From positions 3,620,828 to 3,684,827 of the forward strand of contig NZ_CP039865.1 in the NCBI RefSeq assembly GCF_005160265.1: 64,000 nucleotides of DNA, read 5' to 3'. The translations under genes were made by a program, and so were the position numbers. The notes under the pieces were generated by a model, which saw nothing but the letters and a program-made list of their open reading frames with translations, was not told the origin of the DNA and searched no databases. Source of the DNA: Phreatobacter aquaticus. Its GTDB lineage: Bacteria; Pseudomonadota; Alphaproteobacteria; Rhizobiales; Phreatobacteraceae. This document shows, in pieces, positions 2,540-16,739 of this stretch (its first letter is position 1; every line of letters starts with the position of its first letter).

Positions 2540-5500
2540 ATGTTCACCTTCCTTGTCACACAATCGCTGCGCAACCGGATGCTCGTGCTGGCGCTGGCGG
2601 CCGGCCTCATCGTGCTCGGCGTCATCAGCATCGGCCGCCTGCCGGTCGATGTCTTCCCCGACCTCAACCGGCCAACTGTCACAATCATGACCGAGGCCGA
2701 GGGGCTCGCGCCGCCCGAGGTCGAGCAGCTCGTCAGCTATCCGATCGAAACCCAGATGAACGGATTGCCCGGCGTTCGCCGTGTGCGCTCCGTGTCGGGC
2801 GTCGGTCTGTCGATCGTCTATGTCGAGTTCGACTGGGGAACGGAGATTTTCAGAAACCGCCAGCAGGTTGCTGAACGGCTTTCGTTGGTGCGCGACCAGC
2901 TTCCGGCCTCGGCCGTGCCGCAGATGGGGCCCGTCAGCTCCATCATGGGCCAGATCCTCATGGTCGCCGTCACGGGCGATGTGGCCTCGCCAATGGATTT
3001 GCGCGATGCGGCCGACTTCCTCATCAGGCCCCGCCTGCTCACCATTCCAGGTGTCGCCCAGGTCATTCCGATGGGTGGGGAGGTCCGCCAGTACAGGGTG
3101 GCTCCGAACCCGGCGGCGCTTCGTGCCTTCGGCGTCGGCTATGAGCAGGTGGAACGGGCGCTCGCCCTGTTCGGTACCAATGCCGGTGGCGGCTTTTCCG
3201 ACCAGAATGCGCGCGAATTTCTTATCCGCAATGTCGGCAGGACGACCAGTATCGATGACCTGCGCAATCTGGTCGTGGCCAGCTCGGACGGACGCCAAGT
3301 GTATCTCCGACAGGTTGCGGACGTCGATTTCGCTGCGCGGGTCAAGCGCGGCGATGCCGGCTTCATGGGGCGTTCTGCTGTCATCGTGTCGATCGAAAAG
3401 CAGCCGAATGTCGATACGATCAGGCTGACGCGCGAAGTTGAGGCGGCCCTGAAGGAGCTTGCCGGCGCGCTGCCCAATGGCATCCGCGCAAGCGACCTGG
3501 TGTTCCGCCAGGCGAACTTCATCGAGACGTCGATCCGCAACGTCGAGACGGTGCTGCTGGAAGCCATTCTCGTGGTCGCTGTCGTGCTGTTCGTCTTTCT
3601 TTTGAACGTGCGCACCACCGTGATCTCGCTCACCGCTATCCCGCTGTCGATCCTTGCCACCGCAGTGGTGTTTCACCTGGCCGGCCTGTCGATCAACACG
3701 ATGACGCTCGGCGGCCTCGCCATCGCCATCGGCGAGCTCGTCGATGACGCGGTCGTGGATGTGGAGAACATCTTCCGGCGCCTGCGCGAGAACCGGGCCA
3801 AAGGCAATCCACGCAGCGTCTTCGACGTGGTGATCTCGGCCTCGCAGGAGGTCCGCTCGGGGATCGTCTATGCGACGTCGATCATCGTGCTGGTGTTCAT
3901 TCCCCTGTTCGCCCTCTCCGGCATCGAGGGGCGCCTGTTCGCGCCGCTGGGACAGGCCTACATCATCTCGATCCTCGCGAGCCTCGTGGTCTCGATCACC
4001 GTGACCCCGGTCCTGGCCTATTTCCTCCTGCCCGGACTGAAGCGGCTGGACCATCGCGAAAGCTGGCTCATCCGGCTGCTCAAGCGGGGCAATGCCGGGG
4101 TGCTGGCGGTGGCACTGCGGCGCCCCCGGGCGCTGATGGCCATGACGGTTCTCGCTGTGATGGCCGCAGGAACCGGCGCGGTGTTGCTGCCACGGTCCTT
4201 CCTGCCCGCGTTCAACGAGGGCAGTTTCACCATCAACATGGTGTTCAATCCCGGCATATCGCTGTCGGAGAGCCATCGCGTCGGTCTTATCGCCGAGCGG
4301 CTTCTCATGGACATGCCGGAGGTCCGCGTGATCGGGCGGCGCACCGGCCGCGCCGAGCTCGACGAACATGCCGAGGGCGTCCACTCCTCCGATATCGAGC
4401 TTGAGCTGAAGCCCGGTGGTCGCCCCAGGGTGGACATCATTGCCGACCTTCGCACACGCCTCGCGGTCCTGCCGGTCGCGGTCAATGTCGGTCAGCCGAT
4501 CTCGCACCGGCTTGATCACATGCTCTCGGGCGTCCGCGCCGAGATCGCGATCAAACTGTTCGGTGACGACCTCGATACATTGCGCAGCAGCGCCGAAACG
4601 CTGCGTGCGCGCCTCGCCACGGTTCCCGGACTGACCGACCTTCAGGTCGAGAAGCAGGTGCGGATCCCACAGCTCGATATCCGCGTCGATTACGGCCGGG
4701 CTGCCCTTTACGGCATCCAGCCCGCCGCCCTGGTGGACCAGCTTGGCCGGCTGTCCAATGGCCGGGTCGTGTCGCGCGTGGTGGATGGCGCCCGCCGCTT
4801 CGATGTGGTGATGCGCCTGCCGGATCGGCTGCGTACCACGCAGGGCCTGGGCGATCTCCTGATCGAGACGCCATCGGGATGGGTGCCTGCCCGGCAGATC
4901 GCCGATATTCGCGAGACCGACGGCCCCAACCAGATCCTGCGGGAAAACGGGCGGCGGCGGATCATCGTGCAGGCCAATTCCGACGGCCGAACCGACATGG
5001 CCAGCATCGTTGCGGCCATCCGGCGGGAGATCGCCGGAGCGACGCTGCCATCGGAGATATCCATCAGTCTGGAAGGGACATTCCAGGCGCAGGAAGAAGC
5101 GACCCGCACCATCGGACTTCTGTCGCTGATGTCGCTCGCCATGGTGTTTGCGATCCTCTACAGCCGCTACCGCTCGGCCCTGCTCGCGATCATCATCATC
5201 GGCAGCGTGCCGCTGGCCTTGATCGGCAGCGTCGCGGCCCTGTGGCTGGCGGGGCAGACCCTTTCGGTTGCGTCGATGATCGGGTTCATCACGCTGACCG
5301 GCATTGCCGCACGCAACGGCATCCTGAAGATCAGCCACATCATCAATCTGGCGATCCACGAGGGACTGCCGTTCGATCGGGACCTGGTGGTCCGGGGAAG
5401 TCTCGAGCGTCTGCCCCCCGTGCTGATGACGGCGTTCTCCGCCGGCGTTGCCCTGGTGCCCCTGCTGATCGGCGCCGACGCACCGGGCAAGGAGATCCTG

Positions 5501-5674
5501 CACCCGGTCGCCGTGACGATCTTTGGCGGCCTGATCAGCGCCACCCTGCTCGATGCAGTCCTGACCCCGGTCCTGGTGCTTCGCTATGGCCGGGCAGCGG
5601 TCGAGCGCCTGGTCGCCGATGCCACCGCACAACCCGCGTCACCCAGCATCGGCACTGCCGCCGAAGCTTACTGA
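2540..5674 (+). CDS. CzcA/CusA-family heavy-metal efflux RND permease
   Basis: 1044 residues, the normal size for the HME-RND family of proton-driven inner-membrane pumps that expel divalent or monovalent metal ions. The N-terminus has the first membrane helix and the conserved RLPVDVFPDLNRP segment. Helix 4 carries the acidic proton-relay signature GELVDDAVVDVENIF, with Asp402, Asp403, Asp407 and Glu409, in the position of the essential acidic residues of CzcA. Two large periplasmic domains and a second block of helices (about 860-1020, including LTGIAARNGILKI) complete it. It is coupled to the adaptor upstream. The metal cannot be read from the sequence; the His-rich partners are compatible with Cu, Zn, Co or Ni. 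No outer-membrane factor gene is present nearby. Confidence 0.92.
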   Translation: MFTFLVTQSLRNRMLVLALAAGLIVLGVISIGRLPVDVFPDLNRPTVTIMTEAEGLAPPEVEQLVSYPIETQMNGLPGVRRVRSVSGVGLSIVYVEFDWGTEIFRNRQQVAERLSLVRDQLPASAVPQMGPVSSIMGQILMVAVTGDVASPMDLRDAADFLIRPRLLTIPGVAQVIPMGGEVRQYRVAPNPAALRAFGVGYEQVERALALFGTNAGGGFSDQNAREFLIRNVGRTTSIDDLRNLVVASSDGRQVYLRQVADVDFAARVKRGDAGFMGRSAVIVSIEKQPNVDTIRLTREVEAALKELAGALPNGIRASDLVFRQANFIETSIRNVETVLLEAILVVAVVLFVFLLNVRTTVISLTAIPLSILATAVVFHLAGLSINTMTLGGLAIAIGELVDDAVVDVENIFRRLRENRAKGNPRSVFDVVISASQEVRSGIVYATSIIVLVFIPLFALSGIEGRLFAPLGQAYIISILASLVVSITVTPVLAYFLLPGLKRLDHRESWLIRLLKRGNAGVLAVALRRPRALMAMTVLAVMAAGTGAVLLPRSFLPAFNEGSFTINMVFNPGISLSESHRVGLIAERLLMDMPEVRVIGRRTGRAELDEHAEGVHSSDIELELKPGGRPRVDIIADLRTRLAVLPVAVNVGQPISHRLDHMLSGVRAEIAIKLFGDDLDTLRSSAETLRARLATVPGLTDLQVEKQVRIPQLDIRVDYGRAALYGIQPAALVDQLGRLSNGRVVSRVVDGARRFDVVMRLPDRLRTTQGLGDLLIETPSGWVPARQIADIRETDGPNQILRENGRRRIIVQANSDGRTDMASIVAAIRREIAGATLPSEISISLEGTFQAQEEATRTIGLLSLMSLAMVFAILYSRYRSALLAIIIIGSVPLALIGSVAALWLAGQTLSVASMIGFITLTGIAARNGILKISHIINLAIHEGLPFDRDLVVRGSLERLPPVLMTAFSAGVALVPLLIGADAPGKEILHPVAVTIFGGLISATLLDAVLTPVLVLRYGRAAVERLVADATAQPASPSIGTAAEAY

Positions 5675-7348: not shown

Positions 7349-8119
7349 TCACTTGGCGGTGAAGCCGCCATCGACCGCGAGGGTCTGGCCGGTCACATAG
7401 GCAGAGGCGTCCGAAGCGAGGAACACGGTCGCCCCAGTGAGGTCCGACAATTCGCCGTTCCGGCCGATCGCGGTCTGCTCCGCATTGCGGGCCGAGCGCT
7501 CTGGATCGGCAAAGACCGGGGCGGTGAGGGGAGTTGGGAAGAACCCCGGCGCGATGGCATTGCAGGTAATACCGCGGCGCGACCACGCCTCGGCAGTGGC
7601 GCGGGTCAATTGGACCACGCCGCCCTTGCCGGCACCGTAGGGCGCGCTGTTGGGAAAGGCGCGATAGCTCTGCAGCGACGCGATGTTGATGATGCGGCCC
7701 CACCCGCGGTCCGCCATGGCCGGCGCCAGCACCTGGGTGAGCAGGAAGGGTGCCCGCAGGTGCAGGGCCATGTGCAGATCGAAACCCTCGGCCGTGACCT
7801 CGGTGAAGGGCTGCCGCAGATTCACCCCTGCGGCATTGACGAGGATGTCGGGAGACAGGTCCTGCGCCGCCAGCGTCTCCGTGACTGTCGTTGCACAGGT
7901 GGGGGTCGCAAGATCGACGACGAGGCGGCTGGCCTTGATGGCGTCTGCCTGAAGGCTCGCGACGGCTGCGGCTGTCTCCTCCGCACGGCGCGCGGCGAGC
8001 ACGACCATCGCCCCCGCCTCGCCGAGGGCACGGGCCATGGCAAGGCCGATGCCGCTGTTGCCGCCGGTCACCAGAGCGGTGCGGCCTGTGAGGTCGAAGA
8101 GCGCTGTGAGGCGGAACAT
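7349..8119 (-). CDS. Short-chain dehydrogenase/reductase (catabolic operon)
   Basis: 256 residues, a classical SDR. The cofactor motif TGGNSGIG is at 18-25, NAAG at 95-98, catalytic Ser148 in NIASLQ, and the Tyr161/Lys165 pair in YGAGK. The C-terminus ends in the usual VDGGFTAK. Closest in style to gluconate 5-dehydrogenase and other polyol 2-dehydrogenases. It starts 3 bp after the HisD-like gene ends and is followed closely by the MDR enzyme, so two different alcohol dehydrogenases act beside one HisD-like enzyme. That trio recalls the HpsN/HpsO/HpsP set for sulfopropanediol. Which stereoisomer or substrate it uses cannot be told from the sequence. Confidence 0.85.
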
Positions 8120-8122
8120 GGC

Positions 8123-10567
<2,445 letters not shown>

Positions 10568-10571
<4 letters not shown>

Positions 10572-11845
10572 GTTCCTCCCGGGTGTTGGTGGCGGGACCC
10601 GCTCCGTACCGGGGCGGTGTCGTGCCGTTCGGCTGCGGTTGATCCGCAGGCCACTGCTTCGAGGCTTTCGCGGACGATGTCCGCGATCAGGTCGCACTCC
10701 TCGTCGGTGAGCGACACCGGCGTGCGGATGTCGCAGAGGGTCCCGAGGATGCGATGGCTGTCGTCGAGCCCGCTCTGGCCCGGCGCGTAGCGCCAGTGAC
10801 GTGGTGCGCTCGTGAAACCGGCCTGCTCAGCCGCACCGAACCACTTGATCGGCAGGCCGCGGGCCCGCGCGAGATCGAGGACGGCCATGATCTCCTGAGG
10901 CGACAGGCCGGGCAGGGAGAACTGGATCGAGGTCGCGGTGAAATGCTCCTGGGGCGGGCGGAGTGGCAGCCGCACGGCCTGCGCGCGGGCGAGACCTGCC
11001 GCGATGCGCCGGTAGATGGTGTTCCAGCGCTCGACACGTTCGGGCAGATCGTGAAGCTGCGGCCGCAGAACCGCTGCCGCCAGAGCCGTCATGCGGAGGC
11101 TGAAATTGGGTGTCCGCTCCGTCCAGTGCGCCATGATCTCGGGCGAAGGCGGATCGAGATGCTGCTGGTGCAACATGTAGCTGCCGGAATGCAGGATGGC
11201 GCGGGCCGCCAGATCAGGGTCGTCGACCACGAGAAAGCCGCCCTCACCGGCGTTCAGGTGCTTGTAGGTTTGCGCGCTGAACGCCGCGGCAACGCCGAAA
11301 GTCCCGATCGTCTGCTCGCCCCAGCGTGCGCCGAGCGCATGGGCGCAATCCTCGACAAGCAGCAGGCCGAGGTCGTCACAGGCCGCCATCACGGCGTCCA
11401 TGTCGGCGAGGTGGCCGCGCATGTGCGACAGCATGAGCACGCGGGCGCCACTGTCGCGCGCCTTCCGCCGGAGGTCGGCGACGTCGATCTTATAGTCGGG
11501 GCCGATGGCAACGATGACGGGCCGCGCGCCCGTATGGACAATGGCGCCCGGCACCGGGGCGAGAGTGAAGGCATTGACGAGGACAGGCTCGTCGGGGCAC
11601 ACGTCGAGCACCTTCAGCGCCAGGAACAGGGCGCCGCCGCCGGAATTCACCGCGATGCAGTGCCGGCGCCCGACAAGGGCCGCGAACTCGCGTTCGAGCA
11701 GCGCCGCATCGGCCTGATCCGCGCCGAGCTCGCCATAGCGGAAAAGCCGCCCCGACCGCATGAGCTCGACGGCGCGCGCGATCCCGGCCTCCGGCACGGG
11801 GGGAGGTTCGGTCAGGTCGCGGGTCAGGCGGCGCGGCTCAGACAC
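10568..11845 (-). CDS. DegT/DnrJ/EryC1/StrS-family PLP aminotransferase
   Basis: 425 residues, aspartate-aminotransferase fold. The PLP-binding features are present: NSGGGALFLAL (67-77) for the phosphate, Asp166 in LLVEDCAHALGA, and Schiff-base Lys195 in SAQTYKHLNAGEGGF. The family normally transfers amino groups to keto-sugars in antibiotic and surface-polysaccharide synthesis. Here it lies between an ABC ATPase gene (8-bp overlap) and the binding-protein gene (4-bp overlap), inside a catabolic operon, which is unusual. It could deaminate an amino-polyol or amino-sulfonate, or aminate a keto intermediate. The last 20 or so residues are a poorly conserved tail. No sugar-nucleotide genes are nearby. 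Confidence 0.85.
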
Positions 11846-12635
11846 CCAACGGACCCTTCTCCTCGCGCAGCGACCGCCAGATGTGGGTGCGCAGATGGAC
11901 GAAAGAGTCCAGGTCCATCACGTCCTCGATCTTGCTGAAGCTGTCCCAGTTCTCCGCCTGGCGGATCGTCCTGACGTCGATGATCTCCTTGATGCGCCCT
12001 GGACGCCGGGTCATGATCGCGACACGGTCAGCCAGATAGACGGCCTCTTCCACGGCATGGGTGATGAAGAGGACGGTGCGCGGATTGACCCGGGCCAGCC
12101 GCACCAGCTCCTCCTGCATGACGACACGCGTCTGGGCGTCGAGCGCGCCGAAGGGCTCGTCCATCAGCAGCACCTCGGGATCGAGAACATAGGCGCGGGC
12201 AATGGCGACGCGCTGCTGCATGCCGCCCGACAGCTGATGCGGGAACGCCTCCGCGTGGCTCTCGAGGTTCATCAGCTTGAGAGCGCTTGCGATCAGCTCG
12301 TCGCGCTGGTCCTTTGGCAGGTTCTTGTTGCGCAGGCCGAGATCGATGTTGGCCCGCACGGTCTTCCACGGGAACAGCGCGAACTGCTGGAAGACGACGG
12401 CCCTGTCCGGGCCTGGCTGGGTCACCGTCCTGCCGCTGACGCTGACGATGCCGGAGCTCGGTGCCTCGAAGCCCGCCGCCATCCTCAGACAAGTGGTCTT
12501 GCCGCAGCCCGACGGGCCGACGATCGCCACGAATTCACGTTCCGCGATATCGAGATTGATATCGTCGAGAACCTTCACGCCGGAGTTCTCCGGCCCGAAG
12601 ACCTTGTTGACACCCTGGAAGCGGATCGATCCCAT
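11838..12635 (-). CDS. NitT/TauT-family ABC transporter ATPase
   Basis: 265 residues from the ATG at 12635. Walker A GPSGCGKTT, Q-loop VVFQQFALFPWKT, signature LSGGMQQRVAIARA, Walker B VLLMDEPFGALD and the switch His (FITHAVEEA) are all intact. SsuB/TauB-like length. It powers the two permeases encoded 11 bp upstream and overlaps the aminotransferase gene by 8 bp, which indicates translational coupling. Together with the binding protein it forms a complete importer for a small anionic compound. Confidence 0.93.
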   Translation of the reverse strand: MGSIRFQGVNKVFGPENSGVKVLDDINLDIAEREFVAIVGPSGCGKTTCLRMAAGFEAPSSGIVSVSGRTVTQPGPDRAVVFQQFALFPWKTVRANIDLGLRNKNLPKDQRDELIASALKLMNLESHAEAFPHQLSGGMQQRVAIARAYVLDPEVLLMDEPFGALDAQTRVVMQEELVRLARVNPRTVLFITHAVEEAVYLADRVAIMTRRPGRIKEIIDVRTIRQAENWDSFSKIEDVMDLDSFVHLRTHIWRSLREEKGPLGV

Positions 12636-12646
12636 CTGGCGCGTCC

Positions 12647-13435
12647 TCAGTTTTCGAGCCCGCGCCGGCGGCGCAGCCAGCCTTCGCCCTGGCGCAGGGC
12701 CATGTCGATGGCCATGCCGACCACGCCGATCGCGATCATTCCGCTCATGACGGTTGCGGTCTGAACGCTGCCCTGGGCCTGCACCATCATGAAGCCAACG
12801 CCGGCGGCGGCGACGATGAGTTCTGCGCCGACAAGCGACTGCCAGCCGAGGCCGGCCGAGACGCGCAGCCCCGCGATGATCGAGGGCACGGCGGCCGGCA
12901 GAAGGATCTCCACGATCATTCTCATGTGGCCGGTGCCCAGCATGCGCGCGGCCTCGATCAGCCGCGGCTCGACGAAACGCGCGCCGCGATAGGCGTTGAT
13001 CAGGCAGGGCGGGAAGGCGCCTGCAAAGATGATCATGACCGGTCCGCCCACGCCCGTGCCGAACCAGAGGGCCGCGAAGGGCACCCAAGCGATGGGTGCG
13101 ATGAAGCGAAGGCCGTCGAAGATCGGCGTGACGATGTCATCGAGCAGGCGGAACCAGCCCATGAGCAGTCCGAGCGGAATGCCGACAGCCGCCGCAAGGA
13201 CCACGCCATAGGCATAGCGCTGGAAGCTCGAGGCGAGATGAACCGGCAGGGTGGCTCCCGCGAAGGGCGAGGTCAGCAGCGTCAGGAACCGGCTGGCGAC
13301 CTCCAGCGGCGAGGGCAGAAACTGCCGCGGCACAAAACCCGTCGCAGTCAGCAGCGTCCAAAGCCCGATGATCAGCGTCACGCCGAGGAGACCCCAGCCC
13401 AGCCTTTGCGAAAGAGACAGCGCGGACTGCTTCAT
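12647..13435 (-). CDS. NitT/TauT-family ABC permease (second of a pair)
   Basis: 262 residues with about six membrane helices, starting LGWGLLGVTLIIGLWTLL. The BPD_transp_1 coupling loop is visible in EAARMLGTGHMRMIVEI (EAA motif). It starts 3 bp after the first permease ends, and the ATPase gene follows 11 bp later. SsuC/TauC-type importers usually have one permease gene that forms a homodimer. Two adjacent genes here suggest a heterodimeric channel, or recent duplication and divergence. Confidence 0.9.
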   Translation of the reverse strand: MKQSALSLSQRLGWGLLGVTLIIGLWTLLTATGFVPRQFLPSPLEVASRFLTLLTSPFAGATLPVHLASSFQRYAYGVVLAAAVGIPLGLLMGWFRLLDDIVTPIFDGLRFIAPIAWVPFAALWFGTGVGGPVMIIFAGAFPPCLINAYRGARFVEPRLIEAARMLGTGHMRMIVEILLPAAVPSIIAGLRVSAGLGWQSLVGAELIVAAAGVGFMMVQAQGSVQTATVMSGMIAIGVVGMAIDMALRQGEGWLRRRRGLEN

Positions 13436-14243: not shown

Positions 14244-14257
14244 TGAAAGCGCTTACA
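14244..14257 (-). promoter_or_regulatory. LacI/GalR-type operator in front of the transporter operon
   Basis: TGAAAGCGCTTACA matches the LacI/GalR consensus TGnAAnCGnTTnCA at every fixed position, including the central CG. It lies 29-42 bp before the first permease ATG and about 105 bp from the divergent lacI-type gene, where a repressor would block the operon promoter. Confidence 0.75.
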
Positions 14258-14360: not shown

Positions 14361-15377
14361 ATGAAGTCCAACCGCAAGGCCCGGATCATTGATGTCGCCC
14401 GCGACGCCGGCGTGTCTGCGGCGACCGTCTCGCGAGCCCTGTCACACCCGCAACTGCTCAATGCCGAGACATTGGCCCGCGTCCGCCAGAGCGCCCTGCG
14501 CCTCGGTTATCGCCCGGATGCCGCCGCGCGCGCCCTGGCCTCGGGGCGCTCCATGACGATCGGCGCCGTGGTGCCGACCCTCGACAACGCCATTTTCTCG
14601 CGCGCCCTGCAGAGCATGCAGGCGGTTCTCGCCGGGAGGGGCTACCAGCTCCTCGTTTCCTCCCACGACTACAATGCCGCCGCGGAGGCCGAAGCGGTGA
14701 AGATGCTGGTCGGCCGCGGCGTTGACGGGCTCATGCTGGTGGGGGCCGAGCGAGCCCCCGAGACGGAGGCCATCCTCGCCGACACCCACGTCCCTGTGGT
14801 CCTGACCTGGCGCGGCATGGCCGGCCATGCGGCCGTCGTGGTCGACAACGAGAGGGCAGGAGCGCTGGCGGCGCGGCATCTCGTTGAGCTCGGCCATCGG
14901 AGGATCGGGGTCATGACGGGCAGCCACGCCTTCAACGACCGCCAGCGCGCCCGCCAGGACGGCGCGCGGGCATTCCTGGCTGCCGCGGGCCTGCCCGTCC
15001 CGGATTGGCTCGCAATCCAGGTTCCGACCACGTTGGCCGGTGGGCGCTCCGGCTGCGCGAGCCTTCTGGGTCTTGCCGAGCCGCCGACCGCCATCATCGG
15101 CGGCATTGACCTGATCGCCATCGGCTGCATGGTCGAGGCACAGGCGCGGGGACTGTCCGTCCCGGACGATCTCTCCGTGGTCGGCATCGATGACCTGGAC
15201 ATGTCGGCCCACCTGTCTCCGCCGCTCACGACGGTGCACGTGCCGACGGCCCGGATCGGCACGACCTGCGCCGAGATGATCTGCGACCTTATCGAGGAGA
15301 AGCCGACCGAGGGGGAGGTTGAACTACCGGTCGATCTCGTCGTCCGGCGATCTACTGTCAGTCGCACTGTGGCTTGA
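14361..15377 (+). CDS. LacI/GalR-family transcriptional regulator
   Basis: 338 residues. The N-terminal helix-turn-helix (about 8-30, IDVARDAGVSAATVSRAL) and hinge helix (PDAAARALASG) are typical of the family and fit the CG-centred operator found upstream. The remainder is a periplasmic-binding-protein-like effector domain (from TIGAVVPTLDNAIFSRAL to the C-terminus), with VVGIDDLDMSAHL near the usual dimer/ligand region. It is transcribed divergently from the transporter-dehydrogenase operon and is its probable local regulator. The effector is presumably the imported compound or a breakdown product. Confidence 0.92.
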   Translation: MKSNRKARIIDVARDAGVSAATVSRALSHPQLLNAETLARVRQSALRLGYRPDAAARALASGRSMTIGAVVPTLDNAIFSRALQSMQAVLAGRGYQLLVSSHDYNAAAEAEAVKMLVGRGVDGLMLVGAERAPETEAILADTHVPVVLTWRGMAGHAAVVVDNERAGALAARHLVELGHRRIGVMTGSHAFNDRQRARQDGARAFLAAAGLPVPDWLAIQVPTTLAGGRSGCASLLGLAEPPTAIIGGIDLIAIGCMVEAQARGLSVPDDLSVVGIDDLDMSAHLSPPLTTVHVPTARIGTTCAEMICDLIEEKPTEGEVELPVDLVVRRSTVSRTVA

Positions 15378-15903: not shown

Positions 15904-16650
15904 TCAAAGCGAGAAGCCGCCATCCGCGATGTGGATCGTGCCGGTGGTGTAGGCGCTCTCGTCCGCTGCCAGATAGACCGCGAGCCAGGCGATTTCTTCC
16001 GCCGTCCCGAGCCGTCCGATCGGCTGGCGGTCGATGAAGGCCTGGCGGGTGGCGGCCTCGGTCTGCTTGGTGGCCTTGGCCAGCGCCGTGATCCGGTCGT
16101 CGAGCGAGGGCGACTGGATCGTGCCCGGGCAGATGGCATTGGCGCGGATGCCCTTGCGGATGAAATCGGCGGCCACAGACTTGGTCAGCCCGATCACCGC
16201 TGCCTTGGAGGACCCATAGGCATAGCGGTTCGGTATGCCGCGCACCGACGAGGCGCCCGACGCGATATTGATGATCGAGCCGGCGCCTCGCTCCAGCATG
16301 CCCGGCAGGAAGGCCTTGATCGTGCGGTGCATCGACGTGACGTTGAGGTCGAAGGAGCGGGCCCAGTCGGCTTCCGACGTGTCCAGCACATTGCCGTGGT
16401 GCACCCAGCCCGCCGCGTTCACCAGAATATCGATCTGTCCGATCTTGGCCGCCAGCGCATCCACCGCACGCGTCGATGTGACGTCGAGCTTCAGCTTCTT
16501 CGCCTTCTTGATGCCCTCGAGCCGCGCCTTGTCGATATCGGTCGCATAGACGGTCGCGCCCTCGGCCACGAAGGCCTCCGCGATCGCCCGGCCGATGCCG
16601 TGCCCCGCCGCCGTCACGAGTGCGATCTTGCCCTGAAGCCGCTTGGCCAT
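15904..16650 (-). CDS. SDR family oxidoreductase (sugar or hydroxy-acid dehydrogenase type)
   Basis: 248 residues from the ATG at 16650, which has a perfect AGGAGG site. Motifs are TAAGHGIG for the cofactor, NAAG, NIASGASS with the catalytic Ser, and Tyr/Lys in YAYGSSK. It most resembles the DHRS6 and 2-keto-3-deoxy-L-fuconate dehydrogenase branch (ALVTAAGHGIGRA, VYATDIDKARLEGI). It stands alone between tRNA-Lys and a gene for an exported protein, so the context does not add a substrate. Confidence 0.85.
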   Translation of the reverse strand: MAKRLQGKIALVTAAGHGIGRAIAEAFVAEGATVYATDIDKARLEGIKKAKKLKLDVTSTRAVDALAAKIGQIDILVNAAGWVHHGNVLDTSEADWARSFDLNVTSMHRTIKAFLPGMLERGAGSIINIASGASSVRGIPNRYAYGSSKAAVIGLTKSVAADFIRKGIRANAICPGTIQSPSLDDRITALAKATKQTEAATRQAFIDRQPIGRLGTAEEIAWLAVYLAADESAYTTGTIHIADGGFSL

Positions 16651-16739
16651 GCCGATATCCTCCTCTGCCGCCTCGTTCATCCCGGGCGTCCTGACGCCAA
16701 GAGGTGGCATGGCGGGAAGGGGCCTGTCCAGCGGGCGAG

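What the first reader, a model, noticed from the sequence alone, without database searches (positions are those of the whole stretch)
10568..11845. Sugar-type DegT aminotransferase inside a catabolic transport operon
DegT/DnrJ/EryC1/StrS enzymes normally serve sugar biosynthesis with nucleotide-sugar genes as neighbours. Here it overlaps an ABC ATPase gene and a binding-protein gene, and sits with three dehydrogenases. The active-site Lys195 and Asp166 are retained, so it looks catalytic. Overlap on both sides implies that its activity is needed in fixed proportion to the importer.
Basis: partly seen in the sequence, partly recalled or inferred. Interest (0 to 1): 0.6.

Follow-up and report, generated by a model that had tools for sequence, protein, structure and literature searches.

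The report
Aminotransferase in a sulfonate-eating operon
A "sugar-type" aminotransferase gene sits inside an operon for eating the algal sulfonate DHPS, and its relatives often travel with, and are occasionally fused to, dehydrogenases of the DHPS-eating family, so it probably handles an amino version of that compound (cysteinolate).

Summary
The gene is real (425 aa, minus strand, 11845-10568) and keeps its PLP residues (Lys195, Asp166). Its "three dehydrogenases" are HpsN (70.5% identical to Cupriavidus HpsN), HpsO and HpsP of 2,3-dihydroxypropane-1-sulfonate (DHPS) catabolism; a LacI-type regulator and an operator-like palindrome head the operon, and SuyAB lies elsewhere in the genome. The DegT passes no NCBIfam cut-off. 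Of 80 relatives chosen by DegT similarity, 60 carry an HpsN-family dehydrogenase (58 within 7 kb, 2 as HpsN-DegT fusion proteins); CuyA-like lyase genes are near 18 of 78 and CuyB-like racemase genes near 17 of 78. Among 289 alphaproteobacterial genomes, 14 of 16 DegT carriers have HpsN, against 8 of 273 others. I conclude that it is a C3-aminosulfonate aminotransferase working beside HpsN, most likely deaminating cysteinolate (2-amino-3-hydroxypropane-1-sulfonate) into the DHPS pathway. The link to C3 sulfonates is strong; the substrate is inferred. "Fixed proportion to the importer" is not supported: the gene tracks HpsN rather than the importer. Against: most genomes of one roseobacter-like family carry a copy (165 of 198), which in the six loci read lies by glmS/glmU-type genes, not sulfonate genes.

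The parts
14361..15377 (+). LacI-family regulator, divergent; HpsR-like
   Evidence: Pfam LacI + Peripla_BP_3; 46.8% identical to the LacI regulator next to hpsN of Cupriavidus pinatubonensis
14244..14257 (.). LacI-type operator-like palindrome TGAAAGCGCTTACA between regulator and operon
   Evidence: only match of TGNAANCGNTTNCA in the 64-kb window; a match at the corresponding place in 9 of 12 close relatives, 3 of 3 Paracoccaceae operons, upstream of hpsN in Cupriavidus (2 copies) and Paracoccus ferrooxidans; none in L029, L050 (cut off), L051, L054, L108
13439..14215 (-). ABC permease 1 (ORF runs to 14326; start 14215 chosen because the palindrome then lies upstream of it)
   Evidence: Pfam BPD_transp_1; 65.6% to a permease of Paracoccus ferrooxidans near hpsNOP/suyAB
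12647..13435 (-). ABC permease 2
   Evidence: Pfam BPD_transp_1; 70.0% to the P. ferrooxidans permease
11838..12635 (-). ABC ATPase, SsuB/TauB type
   Evidence: Pfam ABC_tran; 73.9% to P. ferrooxidans ATPase; start read from the DNA
10568..11845 (-). DegT-family PLP aminotransferase, the finding: proposed C3-aminosulfonate (cysteinolate) aminotransferase
   Evidence: AlphaFold2 model pLDDT 89.3; nearest folds AHBA synthase, Fic25, BtrR
9519..10571 (-). periplasmic binding protein, SsuA/NMT1 type
   Evidence: Pfam NMT1; NCBIfam SsuA_fam below cut-off; 59.8% to P. ferrooxidans SBP
8123..9436 (-). HpsN, (R)-DHPS 3-dehydrogenase (ORF runs to 9475; start MAITHLK chosen)
   Evidence: phmmer E 9.5e-206 to 8v35 sulfopropanediol 3-dehydrogenase; 70.5% to Cupriavidus HpsN; GRYAH motif and equivalents of E318, H319, D352, K353, H359 present
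7349..8119 (-). HpsO, SDR-type DHPS dehydrogenase
   Evidence: 60.1% to Cupriavidus HpsO over 248 aa
6338..7333 (-). HpsP, zinc-type DHPS dehydrogenase
   Evidence: 44.3% to Cupriavidus HpsP, 53.7% to the Rhodovulum counterpart

Best explanation
The gene encodes a PLP transaminase that works at the amine/ketone carbon (C2) of a C3 sulfonate and feeds the DHPS pathway encoded by the same operon. Most likely reaction: cysteinolate (2-amino-3-hydroxypropane-1-sulfonate) + an alpha-keto acid -> 3-hydroxy-2-oxopropane-1-sulfonate + amino acid. In this organism the ketone would then be reduced by HpsO or HpsP to DHPS, oxidised by HpsN to (R)-sulfolactate and cleaved by SuyAB to pyruvate and sulfite. 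Shown by computation: operon membership, identity of HpsN/O/P, SuyAB in the genome, recurrent pairing and two fusions of this DegT family with HpsN-family dehydrogenases, PLP residues kept. Inferred: the substrate, direction and amino acceptor.
For: HpsN/O/P identities. Of 80 loci kept for DegT similarity, 58 of the 78 with a separate DegT ORF have an HpsN-family gene within 7 kb (12 of 12 close, 46 of 66 others), and the other 2 (L067, L074, Acidimicrobiales) are single proteins with a Histidinol_dh then a DegT domain. Genome co-occurrence in 289 Alphaproteobacteria: DegT in 16, HpsN type in 22, both in 14, Fisher p 1.5e-16 uncorrected for kinship; 10 of the 12 families with DegT. The published HpsN motif (GRY[AS]H) is in 22 of 22 HpsN-type loci and 0 of 8 next-best HisD loci; its His is in 84 of 84 rows of the HpsN tree, 11 of 65 rows of an earlier alignment having F for Y. 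CuyA-like genes near 18 of 78 and Asp/Glu-racemase genes near 17 of 78 DegT loci; the Ancylobacter examples, the only ones scanned, pass the NCBIfam D-cysteate sulfo-lyase and cysteate racemase cut-offs, which puts an amino-sulfonate in the pathway. Ldh2-type (sulfolactate-dehydrogenase-like) genes near only 3 of 78. HpsN is partnered by HpsO and/or HpsP without DegT in 14 of 17 HpsN loci. Paracoccus seriniphilus has both kinds of cluster on two plasmids, which suggests two substrates. Own complete genome has SuyAB, no CuyA and no Xsc over cut-off.
Against: No biochemical data. In the CuyA/CuyB cassettes an HpsN-like enzyme alone could turn cysteinolate into cysteate, so DegT's step there is not explained; the fusions favour directly successive reactions, which also fits cysteate/sulfopyruvate. 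One paper reports that HpsO/HpsP make sulfolactaldehyde, not the ketone (PMC11131964, section 21), which would remove the reductase from the scheme. The importer is 60-74% identical to one beside hpsNOP/suyAB in P. ferrooxidans with no DegT annotated in that stretch, so it need not carry an amine. In the class sample only 4 of 17 other DegT loci have HpsN nearby. In the family of G154, 71 of 101 genomes without an HpsN hit still have the DegT, and in six such loci read it lies near glmS- and glmU-type genes of amino-sugar synthesis. 20 of 66 distant loci show no HpsN-family gene, some on short contigs.
Confidence: 0.5

Rival explanations
1. The DegT is a cysteate/sulfopyruvate aminotransferase. 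An HpsN-type enzyme oxidises cysteinolate to cysteate, DegT converts cysteate to sulfopyruvate, which hydroxyacid or Ldh2-type dehydrogenases reduce to sulfolactate for SuyAB; run in reverse in CuyA organisms it would be the unidentified 'CoA' aminotransferase.
For: Explains direct HpsN-DegT succession and fusion without a ketoreductase; own genome has a hydroxyacid and an Ldh2-type dehydrogenase beside SuyAB; PMC11382572 says the sulfopyruvate aminotransferase gene in R. pomeroyi is unknown. 7 of 16 DegT genomes have a CuyA hit of 55% identity or more.
Against: In CuyA cassettes it would compete with CuyA for cysteate; as a cysteate-maker it is pointless in the window's organism, which has no CuyA over cut-off. 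Six of the 16 DegT genomes have no CuyA hit of 55% or more but do have SuyB and/or Xsc (G000, G022, G079, G117, G222, G226); three (G138, G193, G195) have none of the three. In the window it sits in hpsNOP rather than in the suyAB operon.
Confidence: 0.2
2. The DegT aminates 3-hydroxy-2-oxopropanesulfonate (from DHPS) to cysteinolate, which the HpsN-type enzyme oxidises, histidinol-like, to cysteate for CuyB/CuyA.
For: Gives a linear use of all four enzymes in CuyA/CuyB cassettes; HisD binds its substrate's amine where HpsN binds the hydroxyl (PMC11382572 passages).
Against: HpsP-type genes near only 3 of the 66 distant loci, so the ketone's source is unclear; useless in the window's organism, which has no CuyA over cut-off.
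Confidence: 0.1
3. The DegT acts on 3-amino-2-hydroxypropanesulfonate, giving sulfolactaldehyde for HpsN/HpsO/HpsP.
For: Sulfolactaldehyde is reported as the HpsO/HpsP product (PMC11131964); the top profile hit in the PDB, KdnA 5k8b, as I recall aminates a terminal aldehyde.
Against: Does not explain the cysteate enzymes CuyA and CuyB in the cassettes; the only occurrence I met is one red alga, in the reference list of PMC8319176.
Confidence: 0.08
4. It serves cell-surface or nucleotide-sugar biosynthesis and is in the operon by chance.
For: Family and fold are those of sugar aminotransferases; unlinked relatives in six roseobacter-like loci lie near glmS and glmU.
Against: No nucleotide-sugar genes among the eight operon genes; operon membership in 12 of 12 close relatives and again, in a different position, in Paracoccaceae; genome co-occurrence with HpsN; none of the 7 NCBIfam sugar-aminotransferase models listed reaches its cut-off.
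Confidence: 0.05

Closest known systems
hpsNOP-suyAB DHPS operon (Cupriavidus pinatubonensis)
   Same: LacI regulator, operator-like palindrome, HpsN/HpsO/HpsP, SuyAB as lyase
   Different: Adds a DegT aminotransferase and has an SsuABC-type importer in place of the MFS transporter; suyAB is unlinked
CuyA/CuyB cysteate cassette (Ancylobacter, Ensifer, Paracoccus, Leisingera, Mesorhizobium plasmids)
   Same: Contains the same DegT family with an HpsN-family gene, in three of the five beside a tauA-type importer
   Different: Window has HpsO/HpsP and no CuyA/CuyB
DegT/DnrJ/EryC1/StrS aminotransferases (AHBA synthase 1b9h, BtrR 2c7t, KdnA 5k8b, Fic25 8gyh)
   Same: Fold and PLP residues
   Different: 18-27% identity among the 50 listed structure matches; family-specific R143, H145 and R374; sulfonate-pathway context

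Membership tests
DegT/DnrJ/EryC1/StrS (PF01041) | profile match over the curated cut-off | tested here: met
   183.4 bits vs 19.8
DegT/DnrJ/EryC1/StrS (PF01041) | PLP-binding Lys and ring-N Asp (aminotransferase rather than dehydratase type) | tested here: met
   K195 and D166 in 104 of 104 rows; their roles are recalled from the family
nucleotide-sugar aminotransferase (any NCBIfam equivalog) | score over the equivalog cut-off | tested here: not met
   best PseC 113.7 bits vs 423.5
hpsNOP DHPS catabolic operon | HpsN with GRY[AS]H motif and catalytic residues | tested here: met
hpsNOP DHPS catabolic operon | HpsO and HpsP linked to HpsN | tested here: met
   60.1% and 44.3% to Cupriavidus HpsO/HpsP
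hpsNOP DHPS catabolic operon | sulfolyase in the genome | tested here: met
   SuyB 68.1% and SuyA 57.1% to Cupriavidus; SuyB at G000:C1:2893399-2894679
cysteate cassette (CuyA/CuyB) | CuyA over NCBIfam cut-off in the genome | tested here: not met
   of two hits the better scores 328 vs 450 for CuyA and 580 vs 392 for ACC deaminase
cysteinolate aminotransferase (proposed) | activity on cysteinolate | not testable with these tools
   needs an enzyme assay

The most novel reading that the evidence does not exclude
This DegT family together with HpsN-type dehydrogenases is a widespread dedicated pathway for cysteinolate, an abundant algal sulfonate: DegT sets the amine/ketone state and the HpsN-type enzyme the alcohol/acid state of one C3 skeleton, in separate proteins or in one fused protein. 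In roseobacters the unlinked copy would run in reverse to make cysteinolate, including the head group of the sulfur aminolipid SAL, whose supply is unexplained.
Probability: 0.25. Interest if true: 0.82.

Novelty: new variant of a known kind. Interest (0 to 1): 0.6.

Why it matters
Cysteinolate is reported in all surveyed dinoflagellates, haptophytes, diatoms and prymnesiophytes, at levels that can exceed DMSP (PMC8703288, abstract, seen), and is the head group of a roseobacter aminolipid (PMC11631085 passages). My searches of the paper library turned up no bacterial gene for its breakdown or formation; the library lacks most subscription papers, and of the 13 papers listed I read passages of six. 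A defined gene family, with fusion proteins and plasmid-borne cassettes, makes the question directly testable and would extend the DHPS route of the organosulfur cycle to its amino analogue, linking sulfonate sulfur to nitrogen.

Tried and rejected
Polysaccharide role: lowered on context and NCBIfam scores, not excluded. Coa-only role tied to CuyA: lowered because DegT also occurs in genomes without a close CuyA. Specificity residues of the HpsN-type enzymes: positions such as Ser/Thr226 separate the window's clade from all others, DHPS operons included, and Glu/Gln321 varies among DHPS operons too, so they do not tell DHPS from cysteinolate. The HpsN tree does not make DegT-linked enzymes one clade; the DegT tree also mixes contexts (quick method, with one very long branch, L073_15002, which is probably not a member). 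SAL link: the 37 SAL-producer-specific groups of PMC8319176 Table 2 list no DegT, so it gains no support there. The CuyA-like gene of the own genome was first taken as a possible CuyA; by score it is an ACC deaminase. In one search I used a wrong residue offset (13); one search repeats it with 14. Rows dropped: 2 of 80 loci (L067, L074) had no separate DegT ORF and are counted apart as fusions; DegT ORFs outside 341-619 aa were left out of the DegT tree (104 rows kept), which holds 6 of the 11 plasmid hits; HpsN-type ORFs of 380 aa or less were left out of the HpsN tree (84 rows kept). Neighbour counts rest on BLAST to seed proteins and longest-ORF calls, so some ORF ends are wrong. Fisher tests are not corrected for kinship; the 12 close relatives are not independent.

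Full report
What is there. The window lies in a single-contig 4.97-Mb genome rated 100% complete; its nearest relative in the scan of named contigs is a Phreatobacter MAG (DegT 93% identical). On the minus strand, one operon reads permease, permease, ATPase, DegT, binding protein, HpsN, HpsO, HpsP, with a divergent LacI regulator. Overlaps with the ATPase and binding-protein genes are 8 and 4 bp, ordinary for an operon. A LacI-type palindrome lies between regulator and operon (14244-14257), the only such match in 64 kb. It is found at the corresponding place in 9 of 12 close relatives, in three Paracoccaceae operons and upstream of hpsN in Cupriavidus and P. ferrooxidans; L029, L108, L051 and L054 have no match and L050 is cut off.

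The operon is the DHPS operon. The histidinol-dehydrogenase-like protein is HpsN (8v35, E 9.5e-206; 70.5% to Cupriavidus HpsN), with the GRYAH motif and catalytic residues described in PMC11382572 (abstract, outline and passages seen; residues checked). The SDR is HpsO (60.1%) and the zinc dehydrogenase HpsP (44.3%; 53.7% to Rhodovulum). Elsewhere in the genome SuyA and SuyB (57.1% and 68.1% to Cupriavidus) sit beside a hydroxyacid dehydrogenase, an Ldh2-type dehydrogenase and a YeiH-type exporter. No CuyA passes its cut-off (the best hit is ACC deaminase by score) and no Xsc does. So DHPS should go to (R)-sulfolactate and be cleaved by SuyAB.

The DegT subfamily. By sequence and predicted fold it is a DegT aminotransferase, but none of the 7 NCBIfam models it matches reaches its cut-off. 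Among 104 relatives K195 and D166 are in all 104, and R143, H145, R374 and P376 in 103; that R143, H145 and R374 are special to this subfamily is my reading of the alignments.

It travels with HpsN-family dehydrogenases. A scan of genome contigs with a three-sequence DegT alignment kept 80 loci by DegT similarity. In the 78 with a separate DegT ORF, an HpsN-family gene lies within 7 kb in 58: 12 of 12 close relatives and 46 of 66 others; 44 same-strand pairs have a gap under 400 bp. The remaining two, from Acidimicrobiales, are single proteins with a Histidinol_dh domain followed by DegT. The loci span Alpha-, Beta- and Gammaproteobacteria, Desulfobacterota, SAR324 and Actinomycetota. Near the 78 DegT genes are CuyA-like genes in 18, racemase in 17, HpsP-type in 15 (12 of them close relatives), TauB/SsuB-type ATPase in 30, TRAP large subunit in 8, exporter in 3, SuyA/B in 1, Ldh2 in 3 and a threonine-synthase-like gene in 4. 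On annotated plasmids the module is CuyA, DegT, racemase and HpsN-like, with a tauA-type or TRAP importer in most; the Ancylobacter CuyA and racemase pass the NCBIfam models for D-cysteate sulfo-lyase and cysteate racemase.

Class sample. Among 289 alphaproteobacterial genomes DegT is in 16 at E 1e-40 and HpsN type (52% identity or more; 22 of 22 with the motif, against 0 of 8 next-best examined) in 22; 14 have both (p 1.5e-16, not corrected for kinship). Only 4 of 17 other DegT loci here have HpsN close by. Of the 17 HpsN loci fetched from genomes where HpsN was not already seen beside DegT, 14 have HpsO and/or HpsP, 3 have neither, and none has DegT. So HpsN is usually partnered either by HpsO/HpsP or by DegT; the window and 15 relatives (12 close, 3 Paracoccaceae) combine both. 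Paracoccus seriniphilus carries the two kinds on separate plasmids, and a Ruegeria plasmid has CuyA, racemase and HpsN-like genes without DegT next to them.

Interpretation. Four C3 sulfonates form a square: cysteinolate and cysteate carry an amine, 3-hydroxy-2-oxopropanesulfonate and sulfopyruvate a ketone; an HpsN/HisD-type enzyme oxidises alcohol to acid, a transaminase swaps amine and ketone. HisD binds its substrate's amine where HpsN binds the hydroxyl (PMC11382572), so HpsN-type enzymes could serve cysteinolate. In the window's organism, with HpsO/HpsP and only SuyAB, deamination of cysteinolate to the ketone makes best use of the neighbours; PMC11131964 (passages) states that this ketone and cysteinolate were both detected in the DHPS-producing diatoms and coccolithophores studied. 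The exact step remains inference: cysteate deamination to sulfopyruvate fits nearly as well, and the product of HpsO/HpsP is disputed (a 2-dehydrogenase by name in the Cupriavidus record; sulfolactaldehyde in PMC11131964, section 21).

Roseobacter-like genomes, a result that cuts both ways. In 198 genomes of the family of G154 (unnamed; its DegT groups with Marimonas, Lutimaribacter and other Rhodobacterales in the tree) the DegT is in 165 at E 1e-60 (four of these only weakly, best E above 1e-100) and HpsN in 97 at E 1e-140: both 94, HpsN only 3, DegT only 71, neither 30. In the six such loci read (L034, L035, L036, L100, L109, L122) members of the same glmS and glmU clusters lie near DegT; three of these twelve genes were scanned and pass glmS or glmU cut-offs. 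No sulfonate enzyme matching the seeds was found there, only an ABC ATPase and permease in L109. The tree nests these copies among catabolic ones. A sugar role for these copies is possible; so is cysteinolate synthesis, for example for the SAL head group (PMC11631085 passages), but Table 2 of PMC8319176 (section 15 read) does not list a DegT.

Literature. Searches for cysteinolic acid, cysteinolate, its systematic names and DegT with sulfonate gave 13 papers naming cysteinolic acid or cysteinolate. I read passages of six of them (PMC8703288, PMC9695272, PMC11631085, PMC8319176, PMC8027193, PMC11131964) and only the listing of the other seven; none that I saw names a bacterial catabolic gene for it. 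A review by Burchill and Williams (2022) on cysteinolic acid is cited in PMC11631085 but was not seen by me, so a proposal of this kind may exist there.

Noticed in passing
L034, L035, L036, L100, L109, L122: DegT of the same family in roseobacter-like genomes, in a shared setting with glmS and glmU; present in 165 of 198 genomes of that family, more often than HpsN (97 of 198).
   Followed up: partly
L067:7826-10858 and L074:6617-9196: Acidimicrobiales proteins that fuse an HpsN-family dehydrogenase (GRFAH motif) to the DegT.
   Followed up: yes
L027:11463-12689, L057, L062, L066, L068: Threonine-synthase-like PLP enzyme near HpsN-like and DegT genes in loci where no CuyA-like gene was found; may be another cysteate lyase.
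   Followed up: no
L066, L088, L104, L121: RidA-family gene (L088 copy scanned) near DegT/HpsN-like genes, three of the four loci also with CuyA; would fit removal of aminoacrylate made by the lyase.
   Followed up: no
L041, L043, L060, L061, L063: A second, more distant DegT subfamily (EAEPIPE-like N-terminus in L041 and L043, 37-38% identical to the window's), in L060, L061 and L063 in the same locus as the first.
   Followed up: no
window 15904-16710: A further SDR gene beyond the regulator, 33% identical to HpsO; not clearly part of the operon.
   Followed up: no
window 2540-5674: CusA/CzcA-family heavy-metal efflux RND transporter beyond the 3' end of the operon, on the other strand.
   Followed up: no
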